This document shows positions 18,283-63,920 of a stretch of 64,000 bases of DNA, piece after piece. This DNA comes from Acanthochlamys bracteata. Lineage: Eukaryota > Streptophyta > Magnoliopsida > Pandanales > Velloziaceae. Both the position numbers and the translations under genes were made by a program. The notes under the pieces were generated by a model. That model was not told the DNA's origin. It made no database searches and worked only from the letters and a program-made list of their open reading frames with translations. Numbering within the stretch: the stretch's first letter is position 1; each line of letters opens with the position of its first letter. Location of the stretch: the NCBI GenBank assembly GCA_019914995.1, contig CM034130.1, forward strand, positions 2,666,001 through 2,730,000, given 5' to 3'.

Positions 18283-18966
18283 AGTGCGTAGAATGTTCAC
18301 CCTTACTATCACTGCTTTTTAATTAAGAAGTATTTATAATAAAAACTCTTTTTATGATAAAATTTTTTTATAATTTAAAAACAAACTTAGCTTTATTGAA
18401 TTAAAAAAATAATTATATATAAAATTATAGATATAAGCTTTCTGTTTTTTTAGTAAAATAATTCTATAAAATTGTGAAAAAAATTTAGTTCTAACATTAT
18501 CATTTAGGACAACTCACTTTTTAGGTGGCGTTTGATTCAACTTTTTTAAAAACTAATTTTTAGTTTTCTTAATATATATTTTTTGTAGCTTTTAAAAATT
18601 TTTTTAAAGTTTTAAAAAGTATAAAAAATTTTATATAATAAAATTTTTTAATTACTTATTTTAATATTTTAAAAAAAATTTCATTTTAAAAAAATTATTT
18701 CAAAATTATTTCTGAATGCCTTTGTAGTAATCAATTTCTAATTCAATTATATTTTAATTACATAGAATTTTTTTTTGACAAATTGTAAGTTTGAATTATT
18801 CTGTGTTTTAAGTTTACTTTAAATTTATTTCTAATTTATATTTTATAATTCAATTTTAAGGAATTTTTTGGTTTAGCGAACTCATTTTCTACCTATTAAA
18901 ATACACACATTGAATGATAAATTTGGTGGGACCTCGTGAAATAATTGATCTGGTTCATGTTCGCTA
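18283..18966. other. AT-rich region upstream of MSRA5
   Basis: Mostly A/T tracts, with a degraded MITE-like block about 18530-18720. The last 80 bp are the likely 5' UTR of MSRA5. No gene seen. Confidence 0.5.
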
Positions 18967-21284
18967 ATGAATGCGAAAAAAATGAAGCTAAAAGAGTTGG
19001 TGCCGATCTGTTTGTTTCTTCTTCTCGCCGCCCGTGAATTGGTGACGGCTATCAGGTTGCCGGAGAAATCGAAGCAATCCAGTGGAGTTGAACAACCGGC
19101 GACAACGAAGATTGCGGTGTTTGCTTTAGGAAGTTTCTGGTGGTCTGAAGCAGAGTTCGGGTGTGTTCCCGGCGTGGTTAGCACCGTCGTTGGATACGCC
19201 GGCGGAACAAAGGTTAACCCTGAGTTTCGCAATATCGGGGATCACGCTGAATGCGTTCAGGTTCTCTATCTGTCTCCTACAAATTATTTACTGTATATGA
19301 TTATGTTGGATTTGTTATCTCAAGTTTGCAAGCGATCTATATTGCTGAAGTGATTGGGAAAAGTTAATGTGGAAATATACGGTTATGCAGCTTTTTCCTT
19401 AGGATTGCTTTTTTCTCTTCGCTAGGGATGCATGCAGATTTGATAATGAAATTGCAGTATTACTTCATGAGTTGTTAGTTTAAGAGGCTTATTTTTGTGC
19501 ATGCAGGTTGAATATGATCCCAGATTGATACAGTTTAAGCAGCTTTTGGATGTCTTTTGGGTTAGTCATGACTCTCGGGAAGTTTATGGCCAAGGACCAG
19601 ATGTTGGTAATCAGTATAGGTAATTAACTTTTTATGTCGCATTGTTAGGTGACCATTGGTAGCATTGTATAATCGTAAGTTTCTTGATATGGCATGGGGC
19701 TGGTCAAGCTTTTCAGAATTTCCCGATTATATGACACCAATTGTGTTTACATGATAAATTGGAGGAAATTGTTTATTCTTCAAATTCGGTATAAATTTCA
19801 GAACAAAGCTAGAAAACAAACTACCATGAAAATTGTTAATGTTGATTCATTAAAATTGTTGAGAAATGCGGCAATGTACCCAGCTTCTTAATGCATAAAC
19901 TATGTACTCCAGCTCCTTAATGCATAAACTGTGTGCAAGGTTAGTCCCTGTCGAACTGCCACCTTTAGTGAGCTAGCTTTGCATATAACCTCCAAGATCA
20001 TGAACCCATTGAAAGCATCTCAATAAGCCAAATTTCCATCTCCAGAAACCAAGATCTTTAAACTACACAAGACTGGCTACTAACTGAAACTTTCCATAAA
20101 AGCATGTATTTGTGCAATATTTCTTATAGAACACTTTTGATGGCTTAAGTCTTCATAACTTAAGATGTATAATTTAACGAGTGAGTTTCAATTGAAGCCT
20201 TTCCCTGGTGAAATTTGTAGGTCTATAATTTTCACTAATGGTACTCAAGAGGCTAGATTGGCTGCTGCAAGCAAAGAAAGAGAACAGACAAAAGATAGGA
20301 GCAGCATTGTGACTACTCAAATACAGCAGCTACGCACATTCTACATTGCTGAATCTGAGCATCAGGTGTCTGTCTCATTTTGCACAACCTTTATCTTATA
20401 GGACCTGTTTGAGGGGGTGGCGGGGGGTTGCAAAATTTGTGTTGGAATGGGACTTAGTTGGATCTATGCAAATAAGTGATATTGTGGCATAGATACTATT
20501 AAAATTGTTCTCAGGAGTTGTTAGTTTTTTCAGTTGTAACTTATGCAAAGGCTTCTATTTCTATGCTTGCATTTAGGGGAAGAATGCTTGAAGGATAGGT
20601 CATTGAAGTTAATCCACCTTTGATCATGAATTGAGAGAAATCAAGGTTGTTAGATAAGCTGTATGCTGAAACTTATGTGAAGAATTTATTTATCTGTTGC
20701 TCTTAGGGAAGAATGCTTGAAGGATAGTTCATGAGCATTAATAGTCAAATGGCTTGATCATTATATGTTATGGTCCTCAGTCTTCACATATTGATAGAGT
20801 CTAGCTTTAAAATATTATTCAGCATATCCTAAGTTATAATGGATGTTTGAATTTATTCAGCCAACTCATATATGCTAGTTATTCATGCTTAAATCCCTCA
20901 GAGTTACATCTGTATACATTTAGTGTAGCACCAAACTCAAATATTATAAAAAGATTTTAGACAGAAATATGTATATTGGCTTTCATTATGAAAAGTTGAA
21001 ATATATTAGAGCTAGGGAGGTTCTTCAGTCTCTTTTTAGTAGATGTAGAACTGATTCTCTCTAAATCGTTGGACCAAATTCTGCAGAAATTTCAGTTGAA
21101 GCGCAACAGGTTTTTCCTGCAGTTGATGGGTAACATTCCTGATGAGGAACTAATAAAGTTGAGCTTAGCTGCTAAAGTGAATAGTTATGCTGCCGAGCTT
21201 TGTCCTCCGAGGATCCAGAAGAAAATAGAAGCTAAGATTGATGAAATTATGAAGAATGGTTGGCCTGTCTTGAGAGAAGTTTAG
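18967..21284 (+). CDS. MSRA5: Peptide methionine sulfoxide reductase A5-like, secretory pathway
   Basis: MsrA enzymes reduce methionine-S-sulfoxide in proteins. Exons 18967..19260, 19507..19619, 20221..20365 and 21087..21284 give 750 nt, 249 residues. An N-terminal hydrophobic stretch (ELVPICLFLLLAARELVTA) looks like a signal peptide, matching the A5 type rather than the cytosolic or plastid forms; translation could also start at Met6. The MsrA core is clear: TVVGYAGGTKVNPEFRNIGD, VEYDPRLIQFKQLLDVFW, SHDSREVYGQGPDVGNQYRS and AELCPPRIQKK. The family motif GCFWG reads GSFWW (residues 55-59), so the classical catalytic Cys is Ser56. Cys66, Cys97 and Cys223 remain. I recall Ser at this site in the Arabidopsis A5 protein too, so it is probably lineage-wide and not a local mutation. 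Enzyme activity is uncertain. Confidence 0.92.
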
Positions 21285-38999: not shown

Positions 39000-40141
39000 T
39001 CAGGTAAGTCACCGTAATTTTCGGCGCCAGCGCTGGAATTCAAGCTGGCAAGCCGGGTTCGATTCCTTTCGCTTTCTTGCGGTGAACTGCATCATGCACG
39101 CTGCTGTCCTTGTATGTATCTAATGCGTTCTATTCAATTTTCACCTTTCACAAAAACTTTGACATCTTCGCCGGAAACTTTCGCGACGGAAAAAAAAATC
39201 TTTCACTACTCACCGCATGATCGCGACTTCGCGAACCTGATCAACGTAGGGAAGAAATATTAAATAGTTTGCAATATCAGTCTACAAATTGCCTACATTT
39301 GGATAAAGACCTTCATTTTTAATTATTCTTTTAGCCGACGTAATTTGAGCGAACATGATTAGCAATTTAAAGTCCTTAATATTACAGGTTTACAAGCAAG
39401 GCACTTATAAATTATTTTACGTTTTTTAACATTCATTACGTAACACGACCTGATCTGGTCGAGCCATATTGACTTTGGGGTTTGAAATTGAAGACGTTCG
39501 GGAATGTTTATACAAAGAATTTGTAATAAAAGTAAAATTTAATATTTTATTTAAAATAATAATATAAATATAATTATTTATAATTATATTATATATTTTA
39601 AATTTGTTAAAGAAATTTTAAAATTTATTATATAAGTTTTGGAGTTGAAAAGAGTTTTTGAAAATGATAAACATTTGCAAACGCAGTATTAATTAGGTTC
39701 CCGAGGTAAACACTGAAAGGCGAGAAAAAAGAACAATATTTATTTATTTAAAATTAAAAAAACAAATTACAGCGAACAAATAGACACTTGTAAACATTAA
39801 ATAAATAGAAATTGAGAAAACAAATTATAAAGACGGGCGGAGAAGAAACGGAAAGTCTCGAGATAGAGAGAAGGAGGAGATCAATTGAGACGCGTCTCTA
39901 TTCACTTCAAAAAATTCCTTTTTTTGGTCTGATCTACAATTTCTTCTTCCTCTTCTTTGTTATTCGATTGAAGAAACTGCAGCGCTAGGGTTAGGGTTTC
40001 AGCGAAATCGATCGCAATCGATTAATTGCTTTTGTGGATCTAGGGTTTCGACTTAAAGTAAACGAAATTAGAGAAACAAAAATTCGAGATTTGGTTGTTG
40101 TTTAAAAGAATCAAAAGAATTTTTTGGTTCGATTGTAGACG
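39000..40141. promoter_or_regulatory. C3H6 upstream region and 5' UTR
   Basis: 39250-39780 is AT-rich and featureless. From 39830 the sequence becomes a leader-like stretch (TC-rich, then GGGTTAGGGTTTCAGCG), leading directly to the ATG at 40142. Confidence 0.45.
39986..39999 (+). promoter_or_regulatory. Telo-box in the C3H6 leader
   Basis: TAGGGTTAGGGTTT is the plant telo-box (AAACCCTAA on the other strand), a frequent element near start sites of housekeeping and translation-related genes. A second, shorter TAGGGTTTC follows near 40040. Confidence 0.55.
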
Positions 40142-43100
40142 ATGGCGGGGATGAGGCAGTTGAAGAGGGTATCTTGGGCCCCGGAGATTTGCTTGCGCCA
40201 GGTAAAAAAACCATTGAAGAAGGAATGTGGAATTTCTTTAGTTTTAATTGCAATTTTTTTGGAAATAAATTAAACTATTTTTTTTAACTAGGATTCGTCC
40301 CCTTAATGTTGGACCTTTTGATTAGGTTTTTGGGGTCTCAGATGTTGTTTCTTTAAATTTTTTTTACCACCATTTGTAAAGTTTCATTTTCAGAGGAAAA
40401 TTGCTTATTTTACTTGTTAAAACTCTATAATCATGAAGAAATTGTTTTTTAAATGAATTACTAGCAAAAATCAACAATAAATCTTTAATGCTTACTTTAT
40501 TCTTGTGATGATAATTTCCTTGTCACAGTTATTCTGAATTAAAAAGAGAAACTTTTGTAATGAAAAAAATAATGGAACTTATCAAATTCTTTTTCATAAT
40601 TCTTGCAGCTTATTCCAAATCTGACAAAATGACAGCATCAAATCTTTATCATTATGGAACGTTTAATCCCATCACTAATAGAAAAAGGATTAATCCCTTC
40701 TAAGTTCTAACATTATTCAGAAAGTGTTCATGCTTTATACAATAATTGTCTTTGATGACAATGGAGCAATTTTCTCGCATGAAGATTTTTGGTTGTCTAC
40801 TAAGAGATTTTAGAAAGACAATTATACTAAATTTATCAAGTATTAGCCAGTTGAAAATAATTAATACAGGTTGCACGCATAAGACCAAATGCTTGATGAA
40901 TATAGCATTACAAAATTGTATTCATATTTAAACTGAAGATATATCAATTAATTAGGGATAAGAATTCTATTCACATGACGTATTTGTTTGGATAGATATG
41001 ATTCAATAACTCATGATTTAAGTTGTAACTAATGACAACTAAATGCTTGGTGACTTGATTCTCTGCATGCAATGATACCTCTTCACCGGTGCAAAAGTGG
41101 CAATGAAAGAGATACCTTATGCAAATGAAACATTTTTTTTTAAAAGGGAAATTCAGGAAACAAAAGTGAAACATGCATAAACCTGACCACGAGTTAATTG
41201 CAAAAAAAAAAAAAAGCAGCAAACAAAAGCTCAGTGAAGCAATATTCAGTCTGCGCTCTTGCACCTACATATCAAACAAATGGGATGATGACTTACAATA
41301 GTTACCTTGCTTGCTTTTCAAAGTAATGGAGAGGTCTTGCATTGCTATAAAATGAACTTTGTTTGTAAGACTGTTCGATAACTTCTTATTGAAGAATGGT
41401 CAATGCCTAAGAAAAACCATAAGGTTCTCATATAATGCATGTGAATGGATCTGGAGTTCAATTCATCTAATAAAAGTTGAGTGTGTGAAAGCTTCTTCCA
41501 TGAGGCTAACTGATGCTATAAATGCATCTTTAGGCACTTCGATGGCATAATTCAATCACGCAGGCAAGAGGTTTATGGTAAGAAATTTTCAGTAGCTATG
41601 ACTAAGTAAGTTGGTAGTTGCTTACGTAATAAATTTATAGAACAAGGTTCTCGTCTTTTTACAAGCCAAGGGATGATAAATTTGCAAATAACTTTTTTGA
41701 TTGCCAGCTGATGGGTTGATTTGGGTTTTTTAAATAGATAAAAAGAGAATCAATCAGAGGCTAAACAAACCCCATTTTGTTTGGTTAGATTTATGTGATG
41801 TGTATGAGCTATACACATTTGTGAATTTTTAAAGAATGCAGTTAAGAAGATATTAGATTCTTGAAGTTGGAGACATTCACCAAAGAATTTGAGCAACAGA
41901 TTGTTGCCTTTTTAAAAATCATTGTGGCGTCTTCATTTAGGTGTGACACTGGTCACCATAAGTCAGTTCTCAATTTTGAGGCTTTATTAGCACTTGAATT
42001 CTGAGTATGTTCTGTGTGCTTGTGCATTTGCAGTTATTGCAAAGTGTGTCAAATGATTTGATATTTGTCAAATGATGTGATATACTGCAGCAGACTCCCT
42101 TGGTACAAATGCTAAAGAGGAACCTTGCTATTATTCTCTGTTAGGCAATGATCAGAATGTGTATAATATAGCTTGATACTACTCTTAGCAGACACTTGGT
42201 AGACATGTTTTCTAGAAATGTTGCCTTATTCATGTTTATATTATAATGTGGATAGTAATTTATCAGTTAGTGAGTATATTTTTGAATCATGGAGTGAGTG
42301 CAGCTTATTGTTTCTTAAACATTCCTCCATTTTTAATCACATTCTTTGCTTTCCTGTGACATGCTATGGGCTTGGCTTACTTACCCTTTTCACTATGAAT
42401 GAAAAGGCAAATTTTTATCGGTGTGTTGGTAAATGTTCTTCTTAGGAGGGATATTGGACAAAATTTGCTTCCATTGTAACTCTGTTAATTGCTACAGATT
42501 TTTTCACCTTTGGTTAATACTGTTTTGGTTTAGAATCTTTAGATCATTGGCCTGTTTAGATGACCTGACTACATTGGATGGATAAAACTCCTTGAGACTC
42601 CTGGAAAAGTTATATTTATAAGATGTGTGTTTATCTATTCTATTTTAGCAGAACTCAGAATCCTTGATATGTTGAACTAGTTTCAGTATTATCTGAACCA
42701 ATAGCATTTTCTTTTTTGTTTTTTTGCTTAGAATCTAATTTTCCACTTCCATAGTTCTAGCCTATTTACTCATTTTTTGTTTGTTGTTCGATTGTCAATA
42801 CAACCTTGGTTTATAATCAATTTTCAGTCATGTCCTATGATCCTATTGACTTCCATCTTGATTGTCATATTTTGTTTGTTTTCTGATATTTGATAAAAAC
42901 TTTGGTACTGTTATTGTATTATGTAATGTATTTCCAGAAGTTCTGAAAGGAACTGAGGATGATATCTGGCTGTTGAGCTGATGTTTTTGTTACTGACATG
43001 TTTTTTCAAAGTATCTTCAGATTCTTGGCATGCCATTTTACTGGTTTGTGCTTAGTGCATCATCTTTCATCTTCATTAACTCCAACGTTCCATTACAAGC

Positions 43101-44736
43101 AGGTGAGGTTGTTTTTGTCAGAGGAGGCTCCCTCGCAGTCCAGAATTGGAGCACAAGAACAACTGAAAGCTAAGGGTTCATGGATGAGACAGACACCAGG
43201 AATAGGTCCAGATGACTCCTTGCCTCCTGGTTTTGATGTAACTGAGGATTCACATAAATTTCGCATCTCTCAGTTGCCGGTCATCAAATGGCGCTGTCCT
43301 AACAGAGTATGATGTTTTCTTGCAGCTGTCAGTGTTCAATATCTAGGAACTTTTAGAAATGACTCCAATCTGCGACTTTTGCAGTTTTTGTTGAACCCTG
43401 AGTGGCAAGTGGTTGCTGGTGAAGAGAGCAAAGAGGTACACTTGGAGAATCAGAGACAGCGTAGAGTCCTTGAGACAATCTATTCTTATCCGTCCACCAT
43501 CCCTCCCAAGTGAGTTTCCTGGGTATTTTATGAGGATTATATCTCAATGACTTCTTTCTTGTATTAAACTGCCAAACTATGTATTCCAGCCCATCTGTTG
43601 CTTCTGCTGTTGAGAATTCAATTCATGATGATTCTCTTACTCCTGTTATACCAATAACTGCAATCGAGGATGAAGATGCACTGGAACAGGTTGATCATGA
43701 ATCACCTGTACGTGCACCCAATCAGGACCAAAAACTAAATTTCGCTGAGAGATTTGTGTTTAGACCGTCCCTAGAAGCACCAGATACCACAGGTCAAAAT
43801 CAGCTACACAGTAATGTCCTTGCCCAGTGTACTGAAAAGCCAGCAACAACTGGTGGATTTAATGCACAGCCTGACATTGCAGCTGCTGCTTCTATCGCGT
43901 ATGCTGCAATTATGGGCAGTAAAGGAGGAGGTCCTGTTGATCCTGATTTACTCATCAAGCTCCTCAGCAATCCAGAACTAGTTGAGAAGCTAGTATCAGA
44001 TTCAGGAAAGCCTAACCAAACATTGTCTACTGCAGCTACAAGTTCCTTGCCCTTGCCTCAGACTCTGCCACCCTCTCATGTTAGACACAACAGTAACACC
44101 TTGCCTCCGCAAACAGGTCCGGACACATATCCTGCAGTTAATGCTGCCAGAGTTCCTGCTTCTAAGGTGCAGCGTGTAGAGGTTTATGAAAATTTTCCAG
44201 CAGTGAATGTGCCCAGACTCCCAGCTTTGGACATTTATGAGAAAATTCCTGCAGCCAATGTGGCCAGCATTCCTGCCAGGAGTATGCAGCCTTCTGACGT
44301 TTATGAAAATGTTCCAGCTGTGAATGCCCCCAGGGCCTCGGCAGCGAGCATACAGCCATCAGAGATGTATGATGTTGCAGCAGCCAAGCCTCCTGCTATG
44401 ACCCCGCAGGTGAAGGACATGAACTATTACAAAAGTTTAGTTCAGCTGCATGGACATGTATCACCTGATCCAAACCCCGTGCAGTTCGGTAATGTTCATG
44501 TCCAATCTAATAATTTCATTGGCATGAAACGTACTGATGGAGGAATCCAAATGACCAATCAAAGAGAGCAGAAGCACAAGGGCCCTAAGCCTTGTGCTTA
44601 TTTCAACACACCAAGAGGTTGCCGGAATGGGGCCAGCTGCCCCTTTGTGCACGACAGGTCTCTTGCGCAGAAGGTTGAACCCAGGAATACAACAAAAAGA
44701 ATTAAGCTGGATACAAGCATTGCCGGAAGAATATGA
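40142..44736 (+). CDS. C3H6: CCCH zinc-finger protein, C3H6-like
   Basis: Exons 40142..40201, 43103..43306, 43385..43509 and 43590..44736 give 1536 nt, 511 residues. It opens MAGMRQLKRVSWAPEICLRQ, a start conserved in this plant CCCH group, then VRLFLSEEAPSQ and LPVIKWRCPNRFLLNPEWQV. A long low-complexity middle includes a four-fold degenerate repeat (44124-44385). One C-x8-C-x5-C-x3-H finger lies near the C terminus (Cys465, Cys474, Cys480, His484: PCAYFNTPRGCRNGASCPFV). Single-finger plant CCCH proteins are taken to bind RNA or nucleic acids; the exact role is unknown. The first intron is 2.9 kb. It is next to IQD32, as At1g19860 is in Arabidopsis, which supports the C3H6 assignment. The 3' end converges on IQD32 with 1.1 kb between stops. 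Confidence 0.92.
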
Positions 44737-45869
44737 ATTTCCTTAATTTATTGTGTTTCTTTTATCCTCATCCATATTTACCGTAGTATATAAAATCTAC
44801 TCAGTTATTAGTTCCGTTCTATCAAAGATGTTCACCTGTTAGCTTTCCTGCACTATTCAGTGAGGTAAAGCAGTAAGGTCAGGGTAATAGTGCTACATGG
44901 CTTAGCAGGTTGACTCGAAAACGTGGAGCCTAAATTTAGGATGCGGTTCATTTTTCTGCATCTGTATTATGTGATTAGACAAAAAAGCAGTTTTGCAGAA
45001 TCATTTCTGTTACGACCTGTGAAGAATTTTCAATTTCAAGCTTTGTTTTTTTTTTTTGAGAAAGGTAAACGTAGATGAAAATCCAATTTCCTGATTCTAT
45101 GATTGAGGTACATCTTGTTCTTTACAAAAGGATTTGATATTCAAGCTAACTGCGGAAATGCAATAATGTAGCAGTAGCATCCACGGCTTTATATGCGCCT
45201 CATTTCATACCATAATGTAGATTGCCAGGTACAAACTAGCAAAAAATCACTTCCGAATATGTTAAAATGACTTTTTATATTTATTTTTATAAATTTACTT
45301 TAATTTTTTTTTTTTAATTCCTTGTTCTTTATAAACTTACTTTTCCGAAAGCCCAAAAGAAGCAACAATTGCTCAACAATGGACCGTTAGGCTATTGGAT
45401 ATTATTACACCCATAATGTTCTAAAAAGTCAAAAGTGGACTTCTAAAATTGCTTTAAAATAAAAAAAAATTTTAAATAAAAAATAATACAAATTATCAAT
45501 ACGTAAAATTTTTTGGTAAGCAATGCCAAACAGGGAGTAAGAAAAGGAATGCTTGGTATAGCAACAGTCCAACTCAAAAAGAAACCAAAATCAATCACTT
45601 TATTTCCACACTTTTGTCTAAAGCATCACCAAAATCTGTGCAGAATAACAAACCAAATATGTGATCAGGGTACAGTATCATAAACAACACCAATTTACAT
45701 GTATAAACCAAGCATCGCACTTGTCCCGTGCATTCATATGCATCTCCACACTAAAAGCAGATGTTAATAACTTCACAAACTGCAGGGGAAACTACACCAC
45801 ACAAAATCAGTAAGCTGCTAGGTAGAAACTGACAACACATCCAGGCAATTCTCGTCAAGCAAAGTTCAA
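44737..45869. other. Convergent 3' regions of C3H6 and IQD32
   Basis: Holds both 3' UTRs. Around 45260-45531 lies an AT-rich repeat whose right end reads GGTAAGCAATGCCAAAC, a good family A MITE terminus; the matching left end was not located. No gene seen. Confidence 0.5.
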
Positions 45870-48800
45870 TCATCTCTGCCATCTTCGCTCTGCAAAAGCG
45901 CATCCACATGTTAGGTGTCTCGAAGTCTAAAAGGCATCTGCTGGAAAAATAGCAACTACAGTTGTCGTAGGTGGAAGTAGTAAATAACTTAATGCAGAAA
46001 GGTATACTATTGCTGTCCCATGACAAGGTGTGTACCTGTGACAAGGGTGTATACCTGATTAAAAAGCGTGAAGAACACAAGCTCTTAACAGGTAGCAGCA
46101 TGTCTATGGGGTTGAATGAACTATTGGACTTTAGCACGGTCAAAAACAATAAACTAGTATAATATAAAGATATCTTCATCTGTAGCCAAATCATGTTTCC
46201 CAAGGTAATCCATTCACATACAGGTCACATTAGTCATAAAATTTCTAACCCACAGGGTAAAAAAACAATATTTTTGGGAAATGAGAATGAAGCCAGTAGA
46301 ATCTGCAAACTTGTGAAAAGAATAATCAACCTTAAAGGGCACCATTTTTGTATCCAGCTCATTATAAGCAGCTAGTAGCTGTGTGAAAGAAAATATCAGT
46401 TCATATTTCATCAAATACTCAAAAGTTTACCAGTAGAAGTCTGTGGAGAATTGATCCCATTGCCCTTTAGATTCTGTTGTGCTTGGGAAGTAGATCTCTG
46501 CATCCGCGGGGACGACCCTTGCGTTCCATTAGCCATAGGTAAAGAATGCCTCTTCTTAGGGTAGTTATCTTTGTCATGCACGTCTGGACTTGCTTTTGGA
46601 GAAACGCTTACATTGACCTTTGCCCTAGCAGATTCAGTGGCTTGCATATAACTAGGAAGGGAACTGCTGCTGCTGTTTCTAGGTTCATGATCAACCTGAT
46701 CCGGCTTTGTGCCAAAGAAACTTCGCCTCCTCGTAGTCATTGAGTCATTTGGCAAATGCTCAGTGCTGCTCCTTCCACCTGAATCACTGCTAGGATTGGT
46801 AGGTGACCTCTTAGGTGCTAGCTGAGATTTCTTCTTTCTAGCAGGAAGATCAGTCTTAGTTTTCTTGGCATTTACAGATAATTGGCTCACAGGTGTTCCT
46901 CGAGATTCTGGAACAATAATATGGCTTCTTGGCGATATATTAGGCGACGACTGATCAACTTCAGGATCTAATACTCTCTCAATGTTGACTTGCGGAGCAG
47001 AAGTATTCTTTGATGTCTGCATCTCCACCTGCATGGAATTAGAATCTACCAATGCGCTAGCATCTTCTCCATTACTATGCTCAACTTTCTGCAGCTCTGT
47101 TGATTGCTCAAGGGAACCATCTATGGATTCCGAATTAACCTTGTGATCAGACACAATATTAGTACGACCATTGGTACCATATTTCTCTTTTTCCAAAGAC
47201 GTAATCTCAAGTACAATCTCACCAGCTTCAGCTTCTGATCTGTCTGGAGAGTCGAGTGTAGATGAGATGGAAATTTCAGTGCCACACTCTGATGGGGCCA
47301 CATGAGATTTCGGATACTGGGAGTCGATAAACTTACGGTCGTCACCTTTTGGTGAAGAAACTGCCTTAACATTATCAGACTTTGACAAGGAATCTGCTTT
47401 GTGCTCATCAGTCAGTGAAGAAGGATTGACTTCATTTTGAAGTTTATCAACTTTTGATCGAGCTAACAAATCTCTGCTAGAGGATTTACATGGCTGCCCT
47501 ACCACTTCGCCTGAACTAAGCTCTTCAAACTTTGATTGAGCAGCAACATATGCAGGATTGCTTGCTTTCCTTGATCCCTTAGCAAACGTTTTCCCTTCAG
47601 ACTCTAATGGCTCACTGCTTAACCTTTTATCAGATTGCTGTTCGCTCTTGACATGGTCAGGCTTTTCAGCAGGGACATCTAAAGTTGATTCTGGAGTCAA
47701 ATCTGACTGTGCTGATATTTGAACAGAGAGAGAACCAGAGCTACCTTCCAAGAGTTTCTCAGAGTCAAATTGATTCAAATTTGAAGCCTCAACCTCAACC
47801 TGAGATTGCTTCATGGTATCTTTCTCTAATGAGCTCTTTGCATTAGGTGCATACTTAGTTGTAGGCATCAAATCACTTTCTCCAGTCGTAGCAGTGTCAA
47901 AAGTGTTTGACTCAGCAGGTGCTGCCACAGTTTCATCCCATTTATCATTAGGAACATTAGAAACACGTAATTCGGGATCTTCTTCCTGACTAAGGCAATT
48001 CTGATCCGGTAAATGCTTAATATTGACTGGGGTTACAACCATCCATCTCTCTAACCATTTCCAGGCTGCATCTTCTTTCGAAGGGTCGCACTTGATGCTA
48101 ACAGGTTTTGTGCTGGGAGTGGACTCCAAAAGCTTCATGGTAAATGAGGAAAATCTTAATTACTCCAACTGTACACCCTTAAAAAATTAAAAAATTTTAA
48201 AAAATGGAGGAAAACGGAAAGATGAGTTCAGGAGTTCAGACCTGACGAGCAAAGGCATTTAAGAATAACCCACGGGAGGCATATGCAATCTTCTGATTGA
48301 TGCTGGTAGTTCCTTTTCCCTAAAATAGAAAATTGATTACAATTCCAAAAAGTAAAAACTTGAAAAACCGTAACAAGGAGTTGGTGCATAAATAGACATA
48401 AACAGATTCCACAAGACAATCACTTGAAGAAATGTGACAGTTATGACAGAAGAAATTGAAGGTCGCACTTTCTTTAGAGCTATCAGTTACAGTGAAGTTT
48501 TGGTGTTGCCATCTATTTTAAGCCTCATTCTCTTTGTAGGCCGAAACCTCACAAGTTGAAGGAGTAACACAATCATATTTTAGAAATTATCTATTTATTT
48601 GTAACATACAAACTAATAATCAAAAATTCAAGTCATGCATTACATAGGATGCTTTTATTCAAATGTGAGGATCCTGCAGAATAACTTACCTCTTTCTTTC
48701 CAATTTCCACATTAGCTGAATTTATAGCTAGAATTTGTGCATGTCGAACTCGTACAAGCATTTGAAGTTTGACAAGGGCATGAAGACAGCGCAAAGCTCC

Positions 48801-51678
48801 AACAGCTTGTCTCCTGACTAGGTGTCCACGAACAGCTGCTTGCAGCTTGACAAGATGCTTAAGTTTTCGGAGTTCCTCCTGAGACTAGAAACATCACAAT
48901 TAAATCGGATATTGTGAACTTATCCAGAGTCTTATCAAACATAGACATATTGGTGGAGAGCTTACAAGATATCTCCTGATAGCAGTCTGGATAATGACTG
49001 CAACTGATTCTGGAATTTCCGCAGAAGCAGCAGCAGTACTGTCGTACACATGAGTATCAACTTCAGCAGGCTTTGCATCAGCAGCTCCAGAGTCAACCAG
49101 AGTTGAAGGATTATCAATCACCGTTTCCTGAGTGTGAGTCTTTTCAGGAATCGATGAACTTATTGGAGAATAGCAATTAATTGCAGTAGCTTCTTGGGTT
49201 TCCTTATCGCTATCAATAGGGAGTGGCTCAGAAGTGACATTATTGCTCAAAACACGATGCCCAGAAGATCTCTTTCGGAAACTCCATCTCCTTTTATCTG
49301 ATGATATATTTTTCTGGAAAATAATAGCATTCTAAGAGCTCCCATAAAAACACAAACATTTTACATAACTTATTTAATGTGCACTGTTTTTTATGAAAAT
49401 TTAAGAAAAAGAAGTGACTTCAAGCAAGACCTAAAAAGTTTTCCTCAAATGATAATCTAGTTACCCAGATGTTTTCTTCATCTTCATTACAATACTTTAT
49501 AGATCTTGGTAAGCTGAAAAGTAACTTAGTGGTTATAAGTCTCTTCCCAACTTATTGGAAGGAATGTCATAGTCAAGCTGGAATAGGAAGTACCTTTACA
49601 CAAGAACAAAATATTGAAACTCAAGCAACAACCTCTTCATGGAACATCAGATTTGAAAGATATAAAGGTAAGGAGTCTTTTTGGTCATTGCTAACATCGG
49701 TTTCATCTTGTCAAGAAATCCCTAGTCCACTAAAAAGTTCTGATCCTCTTCTCTTATAATTATAGGTCTTTACATCTAATCACTCCCTCCTATAAGTTGG
49801 CATGTCACAAGGATATAGCTCCAATAAAAGGAACTAGCTGCAAAAAAGATCAAGGAGGAATCACTTCATGCATCTGGCTTCTTTGCCTGGTTCATTTCCA
49901 ACAAGACTATAATATATTTATAGCTACATGGATTTATAGCGGTATCCATATGGTACTTTCACAAGATTAAATTGAGCACATGAATTCACTTGTTCAAGAC
50001 AAAATCTATACCCTGTGGTCTTCATAGACACCTACCAAAACCTCTATCAAAATGCTTGAGATGAAACAAGTTTACATTCATAGAAGATATAACTAAGCAT
50101 GGGGTTTGACCATTGGCCATGCATCTCCCGGAAGTGGAAAAATGTCAAATACAAGTTTAGTAACGTAACATGAACTTCAACTCCCTAAGAATATTTCTTT
50201 ATGCATAAAATTTAGAATATGTTCATAGCATGTGTATCATATTACTCATAGCACATCAGTCAACCCCACTTAAGGCATAGTTATTGTTGATGTGGTTTTC
50301 CCGAATGAACCAGAATATAATGCCTTTGTTGTGTCTTTAACCTAACAGTCTTTTGGCTGTGCTGTCAAAACCGAAAGGAGAAAGTAAAGCAATGCAACAC
50401 ACATCTTGGCTTCTTCCTGCATGAATCATTTGCCAACACAAAGTGAGTTCCACTTTTACGCACATGATACGTAATCATAGTGTTTCCAGGGTATAGTCCC
50501 ATTAGAAACTTCTTCTTTTTTTCATTTTGTTTACCCAAGCTCATTTAGGTAATAAATTTAAGATAAGAAAAGGAACTACTCCTAACTTTGGAACTGATGC
50601 ATTGCTACAATTTATGTTGCTTAGCAAATTGAAGGCAAGCTAATAAAACTGTGTAAGAGATTTATATTATCAGAGGATTGTCTTTTTTAGACAGACAATA
50701 TAAACACGTTAAATGACAAACTAGGCTGTGCAGAAAATCATTATATAGGTAGACCACAAGTCTGTGGTTTTGTGGCAGTAGTGAATATGAGGATTTAATC
50801 CCTTTGCTACTAACTTCATTTATACAACATTTCGTTCTACCATTAAAATAACAAACATTGCCTGCAAAGTTGGAGCCAATATCTCTGCTCTTTGAGGAAA
50901 TCAAACTTCGAAGCAATCGACTCACGGGGTTGTATTATGCTTGGCGTACTGTCATTCATGTTACTACTTCAGCTTTATTAACAGATTTGGCAGCGTCAAG
51001 GTTATGATTTCTAAAGACCTTCACTACAGCGCTGTAATTATTTTTTTGAGCTAAGATGTCATAAGCAGCAGGAGTATCTGAGCTCAAAAATTCGATGAAA
51101 AATTAAAAACGAGCTCGTGTCTTCTCTCTCTCTCTCTCTCTTTTTGGAAGACTTCGGCTTTGAAGTTAACTAAGACATTAATAATCTAATTAAAAGCTGG
51201 AAACTCTCTAGATCTAGTAGAAGACAAATGCTTTCTAACCAAACTAGGACTACACTATAACAACAATAACTCCACGACCAGTACTCAAACAACATTTTTC
51301 CTAAAACAAGACAACAACAACAAGCTGCACACTAGTGAACCTGCTAAAAATCAACGAACTTAGAAAAACAAACAATGTTAGTACCAGAATCTATGAAATA
51401 TCTACTTCCATCCCCAAACATTCAACTTCAAAAAAATCGCACAAGTTCACAGTAGATCGATCTACATTACGCTTCAACTCACTACAAAATCAACGTCCCT
51501 CTTCAAAATAACAAAAAAAGGTCAAACATTCACCAAAAGAAGCTAAAAATAAACGAAAGGAAGTAAAAGAATATATATCCACCTCTACATCCAGCTCCGG
51601 AACGCCGTCATCGTTCTCGGCACCAGCATCAGCTCCACAGGTGAGAATTTTAAAGCACGAATTCGAACTCTTTCCCAT
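45870..51678 (-). CDS. IQD32: IQ67-domain calmodulin-binding protein IQD32
   Basis: Plant IQD proteins bind calmodulin and associate with microtubules and membranes as scaffolds. Coding order: 51583..51678, 48966..49313, 48690..48884, 48242..48319, 46431..48132 and 45870..45889; 2439 nt, 812 residues. It begins MGKSSNSCFKILTCGADA, then KRRWSFRKRSSGHRVLSN. The IQ67 region (about 136-202) has VAVIIQTAIRRYL, split by an intron at the position usual for this family, then VKLQAAVRGHLVRRQAVGAL and LVKLQMLVRVRHAQ. After KIAYASRGLFLNAFARQ comes a WKWLERWM motif and a long Ser/Glu/Lys-rich tail rich in PEST-like sequence, ending PKKRHSLPM and, across a 20-nt last exon, the family terminus ERRWQR. Retaining the last intron would change only the tail (stop at 46411). 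Orthology is supported by length and by the C3H6 neighbour. Confidence 0.94.
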
Positions 51679-52541
51679 TTCCAATCAAAGAAAACAAATT
51701 TTCTTCTTTGTGTTTGTAAGTGTTAGATTTGAAGAACACTGCAACGAAGAACAGTTTGAAGCTTTCTCTCTGTATTTTTAAAAAAATGAAACTAAGCTCG
51801 AAGAAGGAAGAGAAAAGTAGAAACTGACTCGACGCTACTGTCTTGTTGTCGTTCACCGCCCGGTATCAATTACTCGCACCGGAACACAAAGTATTGGACT
51901 CAAACAGCGCCATTAAATTCAATTTAATTCATCGATTGAGTCCTCAGTTAATCTCAGCCGTTAGACTTGACTTGAAAGGACGGTAGGTGTACCGACGAAG
52001 GTGAATGCACCGAGGGTTTTTGTATCCAGTGCGTTTAATAGCGCCGGTTAATTATCACGAGAATCCCGCGAGAAATTGTGTAAAATATCGGGAATGATTG
52101 ATATCACGTTGTAGTACGGTGATCGGCGGCGGTGATATGTCACGGGTAGGTATTAAATCGTAATTAGTATTTTAATCAGGTGTGATTACAAAATTTAACT
52201 GTTTGGTTAAGTGACTGAAGTCACTGAAATGTGTTAATAAGGGACCCAACCCGTAAAGAAATTACAAGCTCGACAGTAATGCAGTTTTGAAAGTAGTTAA
52301 TGGAGAACTTTACTTATAACTACTAAAAAATGAAACAACTTCAACCGTCCATAGGAGAGTTTTGGGTTCAATACTTCAGAACTCCACTAGCTAATAGTTA
52401 CGAGATTGTCAAACAATCGAGGAAAAGAAAACAACATTTCATCTTTTAATTTAAGTAATTTGCAAATAGTTGACTAGGTAATTATTCGATAAGTGTATGA
52501 TTTTGTAACAGTTAAATATAGCTTAACAATTAACATTAACG

Positions 52542-57958: not shown

Positions 57959-59271
57959 TCAACCTTTTTCTATTTTTTTTCCTCTGGTTTTACTTTGCTC
58001 TGTTTTTGTTTTCATTCTAAAAAATTTTTCCCTAAAAAAAAAACATTTCATTTATTAAAATAAAATAAATATATTTATCTTAAAAAATATTTTTAAAAAG
58101 TACTTTCAAAATATTTCTTTTAGTAAATTGAAATTTCTGCATCTCCCACTCATTTATGTTTGTTTGCTGCTGAGCAAATTGGAAACCAGCAATTACACGA
58201 GCTAGGTAATGGTCGCATGACTTCGTTGTAAATGCTGGGGTTCAGAATAATTTCTTAGTTTTGGCCTCCGTTGGAATGGTGACTTTAAACAAGGCTACTT
58301 TTCCAAGTTTGTCACAAGTATCTACACTTGTGTGCATTTGCATTATGTAAGATCATTCATGTGATTAATTGATTGATTTTCTCCGGTGAACTTCTGATGA
58401 TTAATAGTTTAAAAATTAAATTCACTTACGACAGTATTATTTATAACAGTTATTTTTTAGCACTTTATTTTCAGTTTAAAATAACACATCCTTATTGAAG
58501 GGACCAATATGCCATCAAGCGTGATCCATCTCTTGTACAAGCCAGCAATGGTTTGCAATCAACAACACAAAACAATTTCCTGCATTAAAGAAGACAACCA
58601 TAATATCATAAAATAATATTTGATTCAAACAACAGACAACAAGTAAATCTTACACAATTTTGAACAACTTACAAAAACAAACTGGTGCGCAAGCTATGAA
58701 TAAAATCTTCAAAGGTCAGTGACCCATATATGAAGTATAAACGGCAAAGAGACGATATTATACGATAACATAACTGATGAGCTTTCCATCTGCAAATAGT
58801 TACCTGCAGACATAAAACTGGTCATGATAAGTTTTTTCACCAAAAAACAAACAAAAACAACTGTTATAAGAAATCATCATCAGCTAGGGACTAGCACAAA
58901 TCAAATTTAGTTACCAGGATGTGTAGCAGCCTTCAGTGGCCTTCATATATATATATATATATACTCATGGACGACAATGAGAGTCAGAGCACAAAAAAAT
59001 CATATATTCATGTACGTACTCAAGTTCAGAAACCATCTGAAAATAGATGTGTCATGGAGAAAATAATAAGTTTAATCATTTCAATCCGTAGCAATGTTTT
59101 CTTGAAGCTATGGGTATATATATAAAGCGAAACTGTTCTTCGCTGGCCGTGCTTTAAATCTGTGCCAGCAAAAATCGTCTTCCATCGAAGACCTGTATCT
59201 AGAGAAAAAGGATTATCATGAGTTAAGCTGATGTTCACTATCATGCAAAATTGAATGATGGAGTGATTAGA

Positions 59272-59373
59272 ATGGGTGGTGACAGATAGAGAGTGAGCAC
59301 AAATGGCTTCCAGCATCTTGCACTTGATGCCAGAAAACAAACTATCTGTGCTCACTCTCTTCTGTCACCCATC
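59272..59373 (-). ncRNA. MIR156: MIR156 precursor hairpin (copy A, minus strand)
   Basis: On the minus strand the 5' arm carries TGACAGAAGAGAGTGAGCAC (59367 down to 59348), the canonical miR156. The 3' arm carries GTGCTCACTCTCTATCTGTC (59300 down to 59281), which pairs with it almost fully. The arms are joined by a loop region of about 47 nt that itself pairs (TCTGGCATC with GATGCTGGA). The stem extends outward through ATGGGTG/CACCCAT. miR156 targets SPL transcription factor mRNAs and maintains the juvenile phase. Arm, loop and flank are clearly homologous to copies B and C, which lie 4.3 kb away on the other strand. Confidence 0.95.
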
Positions 59374-59496
59374 TCCACCTCAATTACTAAAAACCAACCT
59401 ATATATAATCATACAACATTTTATACGGCAGATAAAATCAAACAAAACATCAAAAAACATATTGCAGCCATGAATAACAACCCTCCCTGCCCTGAG

Positions 59497-59504
59497 AATA
59501 TATA
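59497..59504 (-). promoter_or_regulatory. Candidate TATA box for MIR156 copy A
   Basis: TATATATT on the minus strand, about 125 nt upstream of the hairpin. A start site 25-35 nt downstream would leave an ~90-100-nt leader. A second TATATATA at about 59401-59410 lies too close to the hairpin to be preferred. Confidence 0.4.
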
Positions 59505-60925
59505 GATCAGTCAAGCATGAACTAATTAACCTCAACAATTAATCTTTTGCTCTTTTTTTCCTTGATCAGTATCCCTGAATTGACACTCTACTTCACTTGC
59601 AACTAAACACCATGAAAAACAAAATCAACTTCGCAATTGCACTCGTAAAATAGATTAAAGCATGCACCTAGAAAGGAATTGGGAGTTTTAAGGATGAGTT
59701 GCAGAGTTTTTCTTCACTTTCAATGGGAAAGATGGGTCATGGCCGACGATGATTAATTCTTGATTCAAAATAACACATACCAATGCGCCTTGTGATTCCA
59801 AATCTTAATTCATCACAGCTATCTAGAAGCTTGCAGAGACACGCGCATAACAACCGTATTTATCAGATACCATTCAGAAACACATTCAATGAAAAGATAG
59901 TGAAAGATTGAATATATTTCTTTCTCCATTTTTTAAAAATTAAAACAAATAAATATAAATAAAAAGTTTTTGGCATCAACTGCCTGAGAAGGGATAACGT
60001 AGCACTGGTGTAAAGCATGGGAATGATTCCGGAAGCTTTTGGGTTGTTTTTGCATGAGAGCGGCAAGCAATTGGGCAAATGTTTTTGGTATAGTTTATAA
60101 TAATAGTAGTGGAGAATTTAAAGAAAGCTTTTAGAACAAGTTGGATTCTCTATACCAGCAAACGAGAATTAAAAAATAATTTATGTTTGTCAAAAGTCTG
60201 AAATATATTTTTGACCGGCGGCTAACTATGGTGGAATATTTCTCAGCTGGAAGCAAGTGAGAGATTTTATTATTCATTTAACTGAAATACGGTAGCCGGT
60301 GATCGGAAAGAAACCAGCCACCCGACCTCGATCAATTGCGATATGATCCGGTAGTGCTATAACAAATAAAGCAAAAAGACTATAACTGCCGCCACCGCTG
60401 CTCGACGGCGGCTGTCGAAAACCAAAGTAGGTAAAAGAGTAGTCACGTGCATACACATTTTGCCGCACGTGACCAGTCATTTCCTACTTATTAAAATTTT
60501 TAAAAAATAACAATCATAAAATCTTTTTAGAAAAAGTGTCGAATATTAAAAATTAGTTAAAAGTTTTGATAAAAATATAACTATATTTTATATATTTATT
60601 TACAATCAAATCCGATTTGTTTATCCAATCTAGTCACTGTTTTTATGAGCCTTCCAATCTCTTTTCTAACTCTAATTACCAATCTTGATTTCAACTCCGA
60701 TAGCTTGAACACTGTATATGAAAGAGATTCTAAGTTCTGGAAAATGAGTTTTATAAAGAGCTAGCGAAATTTTTTAGCCGAAATCACTTCTACGTAATAA
60801 AAGAATCAATCAAATGTATGTTTTAAAAATATTTTAATAATTTGGTAAAATAAAATAATCTGAATTTTAACACTTTCAGAACTCATCATATTCTAAACAT
60901 TTTTATTATGCATGTGAACAGTTCT

Positions 60926-61100
60926 CATACTTTTAAAATATAATTTTTTTAAAATAAAAAATATTTTTATCTTATTTTAAAAATAAGTTTTATTTTTTAT
61001 TAAAAATAATAAAAACAAATAATAAATTTTTTTTACAGCGTTAAATAAATTTTTTTATAAGAAATATATTAAAAAATAAAAAATAAAAAACTACTTTCTA
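60926..61100. repeat. AT-rich MITE-like copy, family A (degraded)
   Basis: Interior resembles the inverted family A pattern (AAATAAGTTTTATTTTTTAT, then AATAATAAATTTTTTTTAC). The ends are not well preserved. A TATATATATATA run follows directly. Confidence 0.4.
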
Positions 61101-62849
61101 AAAAAAAACATATATATATATATATGTCCACATATATACTTGTAATGTAAATCAAGAAAAATTTTGGCAGGCTTTTCTTTTGCATCCAACAATTATTCTG
61201 CAGTTCTCGATACACAATGTTAAACAGGTTGGACATTGGCGGATATTAGATTTATGTATGTAATATCTTCAAACGGCAAAGGTCTATAAACACTAGAAAC
61301 CATGACATTCTTAGAACAACAGCAGCAGCAACACCAAATTAATGCCAACATATATACTATAATTGGTTCATCCAACAAAAAAGGTTACTTACTATAACTA
61401 CAAGGCACTTTAATTACTCATGGATCAATTAGTGAGATGAGTTTAATCTCAGAAGAACTAATCGTTCCGATTCCAAGGGAGAAGGAAAAACCGTAACCCT
61501 AGCTAGGTAGGGTATCTTTCATATGCTACAGTGCCATGCAGTTGCAGTTGGGATGATAAACTAAAATAATCCCATGCCCACGCCAGGAAAGGAATCAAAA
61601 CCAAAGCTGCTGCATGCTGGTGCTGCAAAAGTAATGGCGCCACCTTCACTCTTGAAAAGGAAAGTTGTACTTTCCTTTCCACCATTCCAGCTTCTACCTT
61701 TTTTGACTTTATCCCTTTCCTCTTTCTGCTGGCAAATTCAAACAGCATCAATGCCATTGCATGCACTTGCAATCCTGCAGACTTTACATATAATATGCTG
61801 ATAAATATTGTACATTTAAGTATGGGATGGGTATGGGAAGATCAAGGGATATATCACCACATCTCTATGCTATTCAATATTGTTACTGCTAATTAACCAG
61901 CGCTGTACATGTCTTTGGAAAGTTTTGAAGTTAAGGAAATAGTAAAATACCGACAGAAGTACTTCTACATAAAATTAATGGAGGCATCAGCATTTCAAAA
62001 GAGAGATTTAAAATCATTCCATATATAGGAAGCACCAGTCGACACTTGATTTTATATCACGAGAGAAAACACTCGATGATTTCACACTTAAAATATGCAA
62101 CCATGTATAATTCTGACCATGTTCCACCAATATCTAGACGAACTAGAACTTGTTCCTTTCCAAAGAAAGAAAGAAAATCTACCACTTGCAATTAAAGGAA
62201 AGACAAATCTGATTCCTACTTCAGTTAGAAAATTAATCAATCAAAACTCAAAAGTTTAGCATAATAGATTTTGAAACATGCACATGCTGCTTTAATAATG
62301 TTGTTACTTACCTCATCACCACTACAGAATGTCAGCACGCAACAAGTTGATCGATCAATTACCCAAACTTAGTCTCTGTTTAGAATAGCTGAATTTAAAA
62401 AAAAAAGTTTTAGAAAAAATATTTTAGAAAATATCTTCAATTTGTACCTATAATAATTTATAATTTATAATTTATTCATATTTTTTTAAATTTTTGAAAT
62501 TTTTTTGTATAACACTATGCATAACTATTAAAAAAATAAAAAGATTGGTGTAAAACGGGATGCCAAATGCAACCTTAATTTTAAACAGAGATATCAAGAT
62601 GAGGTCTGATTTGCTTTCTGATTTAAAGGTAAATTCTACATATCTTGAAAGTCTTCTGGAAAGATTGAAGATGCATTGGAAAGAAGCGATAGCATTATTG
62701 CATTGATATATTTTCTAATTTAATGCACGCAAGATAAAGAAAGCTAGCTAAGATTTAACATTCATCAATATTATTTAAAAGTACGAGGCATTTTGCTTCG
62801 GTATGTACATGTCGTTTGATAGATAGATGGAGATGGGAATTTAGTGTGC

Positions 62850-63097
62850 GTTTGGGATTGCTTATTAAATAAAACTTTTGTGAAATGAAAGATATTTTTG
62901 TCTTTTTTTTGAAAAACAAGCTCTATTTTTTTACTTCTAAAAAATAATAAAAATATGTAATAAAAAGATCTCACTCAATAGAATTTTTTTATACTTTCTA
63001 AATTTTTAAATAAATTTTTTATATATTTATAAAATATATATTAAAAAACGTGAAATGGAGAATTGAAAAATAGGATTGGGGATAAGCTGAACCAAAC
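62850..63097. repeat. MITE, family A
   Basis: Begins GTTTGGGATTGCTTAT and ends ATAAGCTGAACCAAAC: inverted ends with shared GTTTGG and GCTTAT. The 248-bp AT-rich interior is in opposite orientation to the copies at 35544 and 37881. Confidence 0.75.
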
Positions 63098-63219
63098 AGC
63101 ACCTTAATTGCAGCTTGCTAGCTTAGGGTTTCATTCAATTTTTTTATTTAAAAATATTGCAGGAACATTTACTCCTGGCTTCCGGCAAATATTATTGCAA
63201 CAGCAAATATAGCGTCGCA

Positions 63220-63415
63220 TAAAATAATTATATAAAATATTTTAAATAAAAAATAGTTTTATTTTATTTTTAAAATATTTTTATATTTTATTAAAATAAT
63301 AATAATAAATTTTAGAATGAAAAATAATAATAAATAGAAAATTTATTAAAAAATATAAATTAAAAAATTTGAAAAGTGTTTTGTCATAGAGCATTCTCAA
63401 AACGCGGTACACTTT
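63220..63415. repeat. AT-rich MITE-like copy, family A (degraded)
   Basis: AT-rich block with TATTTTAAATAAAAAATAG and AATAATAATAAATTTTAGAA segments, ending GAGCATTCTCAAAACGC, which resembles a family A right end. It lies about 50 bp upstream of the MIR156 TATA box. Confidence 0.4.
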
Positions 63416-63464
63416 CTATTTTCGGAAAAAGAACAAAAAATTCATCCATTCATTCATCTTCTTC

Positions 63465-63471
63465 TATATAA
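63465..63471 (+). promoter_or_regulatory. TATA box of the MIR156 B/C transcription unit
   Basis: TATATAA within CTTCTATATAAGCCCC, followed by a pyrimidine-rich stretch and TTCATCAAT about 30 nt downstream, a good initiator context near 63497-63501. The two hairpins begin about 140 and 330 nt further on, the usual spacing for plant MIR genes. Confidence 0.7.
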
Positions 63472-63635
63472 GCCCCTCTCCTCTTCTTCCTTTGTTCATC
63501 AATACAAATAAGAAAGAGCTAGCAATACAGAAGCTCTCTCAATGTATATCCACTGGCTTGATTTGTTCTTCTTTAACTAGTTAGTTTGTTGTTAAATTAG
63601 TTAGTAGACCAGAGGAGAAGGGTGATGGAGATGAG

Positions 63636-63731
63636 AAAGTTGACAGGAGAGTGAGCACAGATAGTTCTTTTCTAGCATCAAATGGTTAAGATGTTGGAAG
63701 CCATTTGTGCTCACTCTCTCTCTGTCACCCA
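63636..63731 (+). ncRNA. MIR156: MIR156-type hairpin (copy B) with a 2-nt deletion in the miRNA strand
   Basis: The 5' arm reads TGACAGGAGAGTGAGCAC (63641-63658), two bases shorter than miR156 between TGACAG and GAGAGTG. The 3' arm, GTGCTCACTCTCTCTCTGTC (63707-63726), keeps full length. Loop and flanks match copy A closely (CAGATAGTT.TTTTCT.GCATC and GGAAGCCATTTGTGC). The hairpin still forms, with a bulge opposite the deletion. It may be a decaying copy or may yield a shorter or shifted small RNA. Confidence 0.85.
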
Positions 63732-63826
63732 CCATTCATTGCTTCTCCATGGACTGCCCGTATTTATGTGTTTACGCGTTTCATATTTTATGCATATTGG
63801 TTTATATGTATGTGATCTGAGAGCAG

Positions 63827-63920
63827 ATGGGTGACAGAAGAGAGTGAGCACAGATAGGTTTTTCTTGCATCAACATGATGCTAGAAGCAATTTGTGCTCA
63901 CTTCTCTTTCTGTCACCTGT
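63827..63920 (+). ncRNA. MIR156: MIR156 precursor hairpin (copy C)
   Basis: The 5' arm carries TGACAGAAGAGAGTGAGCAC (63832-63851), identical to canonical miR156. The 3' arm, GTGCTCACTTCTCTTTCTGT (63894-63913), pairs with it with few mismatches. The inner loop pairs through TTGCATCA and TGATGCTAG. The stem extends through GGGTGACAG/CTGTCACC. It lies 95 nt after copy B in the same orientation, so the two probably share one primary transcript started at the TATA box at 63465. Confidence 0.95.

What the first reader, a model, noticed from the sequence alone, without database searches (positions are those of the whole stretch)
59272..63920. Three MIR156 hairpins in a divergent cluster
One MIR156 is on the minus strand at 59.3 kb and two are in tandem on the plus strand at 63.7 and 63.9 kb. 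All three share loop and flank sequence, so they arose by local duplication, including one inversion. The two units fire away from each other across 4.1 kb that could act as a shared regulatory region. Tandem MIR156 pairs are known in plants; a divergent trio with a degenerate member looks less usual.
Basis: partly seen in the sequence, partly recalled or inferred. Interest (0 to 1): 0.72.

Follow-up and report, generated by a model that had tools for sequence, protein, structure and literature searches.

The report
Divergent MIR156 cluster, present twice
A plant chromosome carries a group of four related hairpins for the juvenility microRNA miR156, one pointing left and three pointing right, and a second chromosome carries the same group, so the layout is probably old and copied by a genome duplication, with different members decaying on each copy.

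Summary
The three MIR156 hairpins are real: A 59279-59368 (-), B 63640-63728 (+), C 63831-63916 (+). The trio is an effect of the window's edge. A fourth, decayed copy (D) begins about 86 bases beyond it, at C5:2730086, so the layout is 1+3. The same 1+3 array, colinear and in the same orientation, lies on contig C3. Two open frames in a neighbouring shared block give Ks 0.33 and 0.36, and the other four MIR156 loci found also pair up. The inversion therefore predates a block or whole-genome duplication. The "degenerate member" is a 2-nt deletion in B on C5 only. A is intact on C5 and damaged on C3, B the reverse, C intact on both, D decayed on both. B-C-D follow a TATA box conserved on both chromosomes and look like a polycistron of the maize/rice MIR156b/c kind (PMC2773440, PMC4409300). 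A's promoter was not found. A shared regulatory region is possible but not shown; an excess of RY motifs in the arrays is a weak lead. No expression data could be examined. Modest interest: a conserved variant of a known layout.

The parts
59279..59368 (-). Hairpin A, MIR156 precursor, divergent member; mature 59348-59367 (-), exact miR156
   Evidence: Rfam RF00073 76.2 bits; fold z -7.65; counterpart at C3:8681462-8681552 (-) is damaged
63640..63728 (+). Hairpin B, MIR156 precursor with a 2-nt deletion in the mature sequence (19 nt, 63641-63659)
   Evidence: RF00073 58.7 bits, below gathering 62; counterpart C3:8684748-8684836 has the exact mature sequence, 72.5 bits; 7 of 19 mature bases unpaired in the MFE fold
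63831..63916 (+). Hairpin C, MIR156 precursor, intact; mature 63832-63851. A fourth, decayed copy D follows outside the window at about C5:2730086 (64086 on the window's scale)
   Evidence: RF00073 77.5 bits; counterpart C3:8684939-8685031, 73.4 bits; D
63465..63471 (+). TATA box of the B-C-D unit (inferred); start site expected about 30 nt downstream
   Evidence: TATATAA at the aligned position on C5 and C3; start site inferred, not mapped
59776..60228 (.). Spacer block alignable with C3:8681941-8682409, upstream of A; candidate A promoter region
   Evidence: blastn 72% over 490 columns; no TATA pattern conserved on both chromosomes
61504..61771 (.). Spacer block alignable with C3:8683162-8683413; holds RY motifs aligned on both chromosomes (61535, 61758)
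   Evidence: blastn 77% over 277 columns
62626..62835 (.). Spacer block alignable with C3:8684145-8684387, with a nearly ungapped core at about 62630-62700
   Evidence: blastn 70% over 248 columns with large gaps; core seen in the alignment
62838..63108 (.). Dispersed AT-rich repeat (MITE-like) on C5 upstream of the B-C-D unit, missing at the aligned place on C3
   Evidence: gap in the C5/C3 alignment; related copies elsewhere on C3, 83-88% identical

Best explanation
This is a MIR156 gene cluster of a plant, probably a monocot, made by local duplication in which one copy was inverted, and later copied whole by a block or whole-genome duplication. Hairpins B, C and D on the plus strand are most likely made as one Pol II transcript starting about 30 nt after the conserved TATA box at 63465; DCL1 would cut each intact hairpin to give miR156. 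Hairpin A is a separate unit read the other way from a promoter not identified here. The miR156 would cut SPL transcripts, which carry the matching site, and so hold the plant in its juvenile phase. After the duplication the two copies decayed in different members: C5 keeps A and C intact, C3 keeps B and C. Shown: hairpins, layout, the second copy, its divergence, SPL sites. Inferred: transcription units, start site, processing, activity and direction of each loss.
For: Rfam and folding. Colinear homologous array, 59270-64154 on the window's scale against C3:8681468-8685350, same order and orientation. The gene block at 39.8-52.0 kb matches C3 too, and two open frames in it give Ks 0.33 and 0.36. 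The four single MIR156 loci found also form two pairs with alignable flanks, C8/C11 and C19/C20. A TATA box before B is at the aligned place on both chromosomes. Of the 16 genome sites with 1-2 mismatches to miR156, 13 were checked as SPL sites (the 3 left out are A and D of C3 and a miR157-like site on C7): 12 of 13 lie 1.2-3.1 kb beyond an SBP first exon on the matching strand, covering 12 of 20 such exons. In the predicted B-C-D transcript C pairs with its own arm at 20 of 20 mature bases on both chromosomes, and B does on C3. Maize MIR156c/b, 198 nt apart, is polycistronic by RACE (PMC2773440, passages read).
Against: No small-RNA, capped-RNA or RNA-seq data could be examined, so activity of every member is inferred. 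In the long C5 fold, C's ensemble pairing to its own arm is 0.77 against 1.0 on C3. A on C3 has only 3 of 20 mature bases unpaired and might still be processed. A low Rfam score is not by itself a sign of decay: the well-folded single loci on C20, C19 and C11 score 57.7, 53.8 and 50.9, also under the cut-off. Gene order around the cluster is rearranged between the chromosomes. In the precursor tree 5 of 9 nodes are under 60 and neither the A pair nor the B pair groups, so pairing of the members rests on colinearity. The 2-nt deletion in B could be a base-level assembly error. There is no outgroup, so which state is ancestral is an inference.
Confidence: 0.82

Rival explanations
1. The spacer is one shared control region: A and B-C-D are held down together by B3 proteins of the VAL kind bound at RY motifs (CATGCA), with Polycomb marks spreading over the whole cluster.
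For: CATGCA occurs 12 times in 5.1 kb on C5 (0 of 300 first-order Markov sequences reach this) and 11 times in 4.1 kb on C3 (1 of 300); density 2.35 and 2.68 per kb against 0.64-0.86 per kb in the rest of the two regions compared. It is the commonest of 180 motifs of the same letters (23; next 15; mean 2.9). Four aligned occurrences at three places (61535, 61758, 64011/64013). In Arabidopsis VAL1/2 bind RY motifs and lower miR156 (PMC8270478, passages read).
Against: Not enriched at the four single MIR156 loci (3, 2, 1 and 2 within 2.5 kb). One of the 17 ordinary 10-kb loci counted has 22, and other 5.1-kb windows reach 12. Palindromic TGCATGCA counts twice. The motif was tested because it is known. 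[quoted passage not shown] None of the aligned motifs is near A.
Confidence: 0.15
2. The second array is an uncollapsed haplotype or assembly error, and the inversion is an artefact.
For: Gene order around the two arrays differs.
Against: The spacer and gene blocks shared by the two arrays are mostly 69-81% identical and Ks is 0.33-0.36, far too diverged for haplotypes; the four single MIR156 loci are paired as well.
Confidence: 0.02
3. A is a silent relic and only C (and B on C3) are expressed; the divergent layout has no function and persists by chance.
For: A on C3 has a changed mature base and has lost the foot of its 3' arm; no TATA pattern conserved for A; spacer blocks are mostly near synonymous identity, 71.5-73.5%, and the whole array aligns at only 62% (2394 of 3835 columns, hairpins included).
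Against: A on C5 keeps the exact mature sequence and full pairing, and a 453-base block upstream of it remains alignable with C3.
Confidence: 0.25

Closest known systems
Maize MIR156b/c tandem (Corngrass1) and rice MIR156b/c
   Same: Same family; same-strand MIR156 hairpins in tandem (102 nt apart here, 198 nt in maize), stated to be one transcript in maize and rice (PMC2773440, passages read).
   Different: Here a third hairpin D follows, and a divergent hairpin A lies 4.3 kb away on the other strand. Orthology to the grass locus could not be tested.
Rice MIR156b/c against MIR156l, and MIR156d against MIR156h/j (duplicated blocks)
   Same: A tandem MIR156 array copied by block duplication and then unequally retained (PMC4409300, passages read).
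   Different: In those passages one member stands opposite a pair; here all four members are still recognisable on both copies, with different ones damaged. Rice block Ks is about 0.8; here two frames give 0.33 and 0.36.
Ipomoea nil tandem miR156 EST
   Same: Tandem MIR156 outside grasses (PMC2358906, passage read).
   Different: Two members separated by 590 nt; no divergent copy is mentioned in the passage.

Membership tests
MIR156 (Rfam RF00073) | Score above the curated gathering cut-off | tested here: met
   Met by A 76.2 and C 77.5 bits against 62; not met by B, 58.7, nor by D, no match up to E 1
MIR156 (Rfam RF00073) | Exact 20-nt miR156 on the 5' arm | tested here: met
   A and C exact; D also exact; B has a 2-nt deletion
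MIR156 (Rfam RF00073) | Mature sequence paired to the opposite arm with few mismatches | tested here: met
   A and C: 0 of 20 mature bases unpaired; not met by B (7 of 19 unpaired) and D (7 of 20)
MIR156 (Rfam RF00073) | SPL/SBP genes with complementary sites in the same genome | tested here: met
   12 of 20 SBP first exons have a site downstream on the matching strand
MIR156 (Rfam RF00073) | Small-RNA reads for miRNA and miRNA* | not testable with these tools
   No read data are offered
MIR156b/c-type tandem polycistron | Same-strand MIR156 hairpins a few hundred bases apart | tested here: met
   B to C 102 nt, C to D about 170 nt on C5; same order on C3
MIR156b/c-type tandem polycistron | One transcript carries all hairpins | not testable with these tools
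   Only a conserved TATA box before B
MIR156b/c-type tandem polycistron | Synteny with the grass MIR156b/c locus | not testable with these tools
   No grass genome was reachable; one search states that G000 has no relatives here

The most novel reading that the evidence does not exclude
A four-member MIR156 cluster with divergent units under one RY-rich silencing region was fixed before a genome duplication; since then the two copies have split the work by losing different members, so that both chromosomes are needed for the full set of miR156 outputs.
Probability: 0.1. Interest if true: 0.5.

Novelty: new variant of a known kind. Interest (0 to 1): 0.3.

Why it matters
The dose of miR156 times the juvenile-to-adult change in plants. 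A cluster held in the same unusual layout on two duplicated chromosomes, with reciprocal damage, is a natural case for asking which members and which control region set that dose. Otherwise the biology is ordinary.

Tried and rejected
Rejected: MIR529, MIR535 and other families matching the same hairpins, each below its gathering score. Plus-strand reading of A: lower score (51.9 against 76.2 bits) and its 5' arm is not exact miR156. A dicot origin, my first thought: miR528 is present once, exact, in a hairpin, and miR403 is absent within one mismatch, so a monocot is favoured; miR444 is also absent, so probably not a grass. That miR528 is confined to monocots is recalled; that miR403 was found in dicots is from a passage of PMC2358906. 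Against this, the miR528 locus gave no Rfam match at gathering. The species was not identified; a guess from genome size gave no usable paper (listing only).

Led nowhere: precursor tree (5 of 9 nodes under 60); search for A's missing foot beside the C3 array (no convincing match); a TATA pattern conserved for A (none); sigma-70 scan, not meant for plants; a miR157-like site on C7 folds no better than shuffles (a first fold covered the wrong side). Literature: the listings of searches (25 of 87 shown; 20 of 75; 20 of 1,003; 15 of 223; 9 of 9; 10 of 199) showed no title on a divergent MIR156 array; I saw passages of 13 papers and read none in full, so this is no proof of absence.
Full report
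Observation. The three hairpins are there as described. Rfam's MIR156 model gives 77.5 bits for 63831-63916 (+) and 76.2 for 59279-59368 (-), above the cut-off of 62, and 58.7 for 63640-63728 (+), just below it. The exact 20-nt miR156 occurs at 59348-59367 (-) and 63832-63851 (+); no match with up to 3 mismatches occurred in 100 shuffles. All three fold far better than shuffled sequence (z -7.65, -6.11, -7.69 for A, B, C; 0 of 200 shuffles each).

The cluster is larger than the window. The window is G000:C5:2666001-2730000 of a 195.5-Mb assembly in 557 contigs. A fourth copy, D, begins about 86 bases past the window's end, at C5:2730086. Its mature sequence is exact but its 3' arm no longer matches; Rfam finds nothing there up to E 1, and 7 of 20 mature bases are unpaired in the best fold. 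The layout is therefore one hairpin leftward and three rightward.

The same array exists again. On contig C3 there are MIR156 matches at 8681462-8681552 (-), 8684748-8684836 (+), 8684939-8685031 (+) and 8685280-8685369 (+). The two arrays are colinear and in the same orientation, from 59270 to 64154 on the window's scale and from C3 8681468 to 8685350. Flanking gene blocks match too, notably 39.8-52.0 kb against C3:8704222-8715931, though on the other side of the cluster, so there has been local rearrangement. Two open frames in that block give Ks 0.33 and 0.36, Ka 0.15 and 0.16. In the whole genome one search lists 20 rows, which are 11 distinct places when the two strands of one place are counted once; with D there are 12 MIR156 copies found: four on C5, four on C3, and one each on C8, C11, C19 and C20. 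C8 pairs with C11 and C19 with C20, with alignable flanks, while the three cross-comparisons made (C8/C19, C8/C3, C20/C3) gave nothing at E 1e-8. A block or whole-genome duplication explains this. One search scored only 59 of 8898 candidates, so further weak copies may exist.

Which members are intact. On C5, A and C keep the exact mature sequence, fully paired; B has lost two bases of it and D its 3' arm. On C3, B and C are intact; A has a changed third base and the foot of its 3' arm no longer matches (3 of 20 mature bases unpaired, so it might still be processed); D has two changes and poor pairing. Thus I count 4 of 8 as intact: A and C on C5, B and C on C3. The Rfam score alone does not show decay: only 5 of the 11 places pass the cut-off, and the well-folded single loci on C20, C19 and C11 do not. 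In B on C5 the best fold pairs the star arm's foot with an upstream copy of the foot sequence; forcing the normal pairing costs 5.3 kcal/mol (-51.3 against -56.6). Calling it a loss assumes that the intact state is ancestral.

Origin of the inversion. A resembles B in its 3' arm (50 nt, 92%) and C in its 5' arm (39 nt, 95%), so it is a duplicate of the tandem members placed in reverse. A and C have the foot GGGTGACAG at the start of the mature sequence (with one change in A of C3), while B and D have extra bases there, which suggests two classes. The precursor tree is too weak to order the duplications: 5 of 9 nodes are under 60, the C pair groups (75), the D pair weakly (56), the A and B pairs do not. 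A of C5 and A of C3 are matched by position and by A's best local alignment to C3 (88.6% over 114).

How it most likely works. The TATA box at 63465 lies at the aligned position on both chromosomes, with hairpin B 175 bases downstream. B, C and D are 102 and about 170 bases apart. Maize MIR156c/b, 198 nt apart, is one transcript by RACE (PMC2773440, passages). I infer one primary transcript for B-C-D. For A no TATA pattern conserved on both chromosomes was found; the block 59776-60228 is the best candidate region. The product should act on SPL transcripts. One search lists 16 sites with one or two mismatches; I checked 13 (leaving out A and D of C3 and a miR157-like site on C7), and 12 of 13 lie 1.2-3.1 kb beyond an SBP first exon on the matching strand, covering 12 of 20 such exons; C20:3024424 has none. 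The 17 sites with three mismatches were not examined.

Is the spacer a shared control region? Parts of it align between the chromosomes (70-77% in the longer blocks), but synonymous sites in the two frames are 73.5 and 71.5% identical (pS 0.265 and 0.285), so most of this is no more than expected without constraint; the whole array aligns at 62%. The motif CATGCA is dense in both arrays: 12 in 5.1 kb and 11 in 4.1 kb, against 0.64-0.86 per kb in the rest of the two regions, and it is the commonest of 180 same-letter motifs. In Arabidopsis it is bound by VAL proteins that lower miR156 (PMC8270478, passages). [quoted passage not shown] I keep it as a lead.

Organism. Contigs C1-C20 run from 14.9 to 6.4 Mb and C21 is 40 kb, so about 20 chromosomes are likely. 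miR528 is present in a hairpin, though with no Rfam match at gathering; miR403 and miR444 are absent within one mismatch. A monocot that is not a grass fits, on largely recalled knowledge of these families. The species was not identified.

Compared with what is known. Tandem MIR156 pairs are reported in grasses and in Ipomoea nil (PMC2358906, passages), and unequal retention after block duplication is reported in rice for MIR156bc/l and d/hj (PMC4409300, passages). What is added here is the divergent member, its presence on both duplicated blocks, and reciprocal damage. I saw no description of such a divergent array in the listings of searches, most of which were cut to the best rows. I rate it a variant of a known kind, of modest interest.

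Noticed in passing
window 62838-63108: AT-rich dispersed repeat (MITE-like) sits about 0.36 kb before the TATA box of the B-C-D unit on C5 and is missing at the aligned place on C3; 37905-38124 matches the same C3 copies.
   Followed up: partly
window 39825-51974: Gene block with a DUF4005 open frame (46411-48159, -; IQD-like by recall) and a frame at 43534-44736 (+) with a CCCH-like motif seen by eye and no Pfam match, shared with C3:8704222-8715931 but on the other side of the MIR156 array there.
   Followed up: partly
window 59270-59290 and C3:8681460-8681470: Homology between the two chromosomes stops inside or just beside hairpin A's 3' foot, as if a rearrangement breakpoint damaged A on C3; the missing foot was not found nearby.
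   Followed up: partly
G000:C20:3024424-3024443: A one-mismatch miR156 site of the SPL-target type with no SBP exon nearby: a possible non-SPL target or SPL relic.
   Followed up: no
G000:C5:2750780-2754568 (outside the window): A 3.8-kb element matching C3:8640971-8644762 at 89%; its about 0.58-kb ends each also match the opposite end of the C3 copy at 90-91%. Looks like an LTR retrotransposon.
   Followed up: no
window 13051-13410, 18949-19353, 3314-3595: Gene pieces: AUX/IAA-type domain (ARF-like by recall), peptide methionine sulfoxide reductase, TPR repeats.
   Followed up: no
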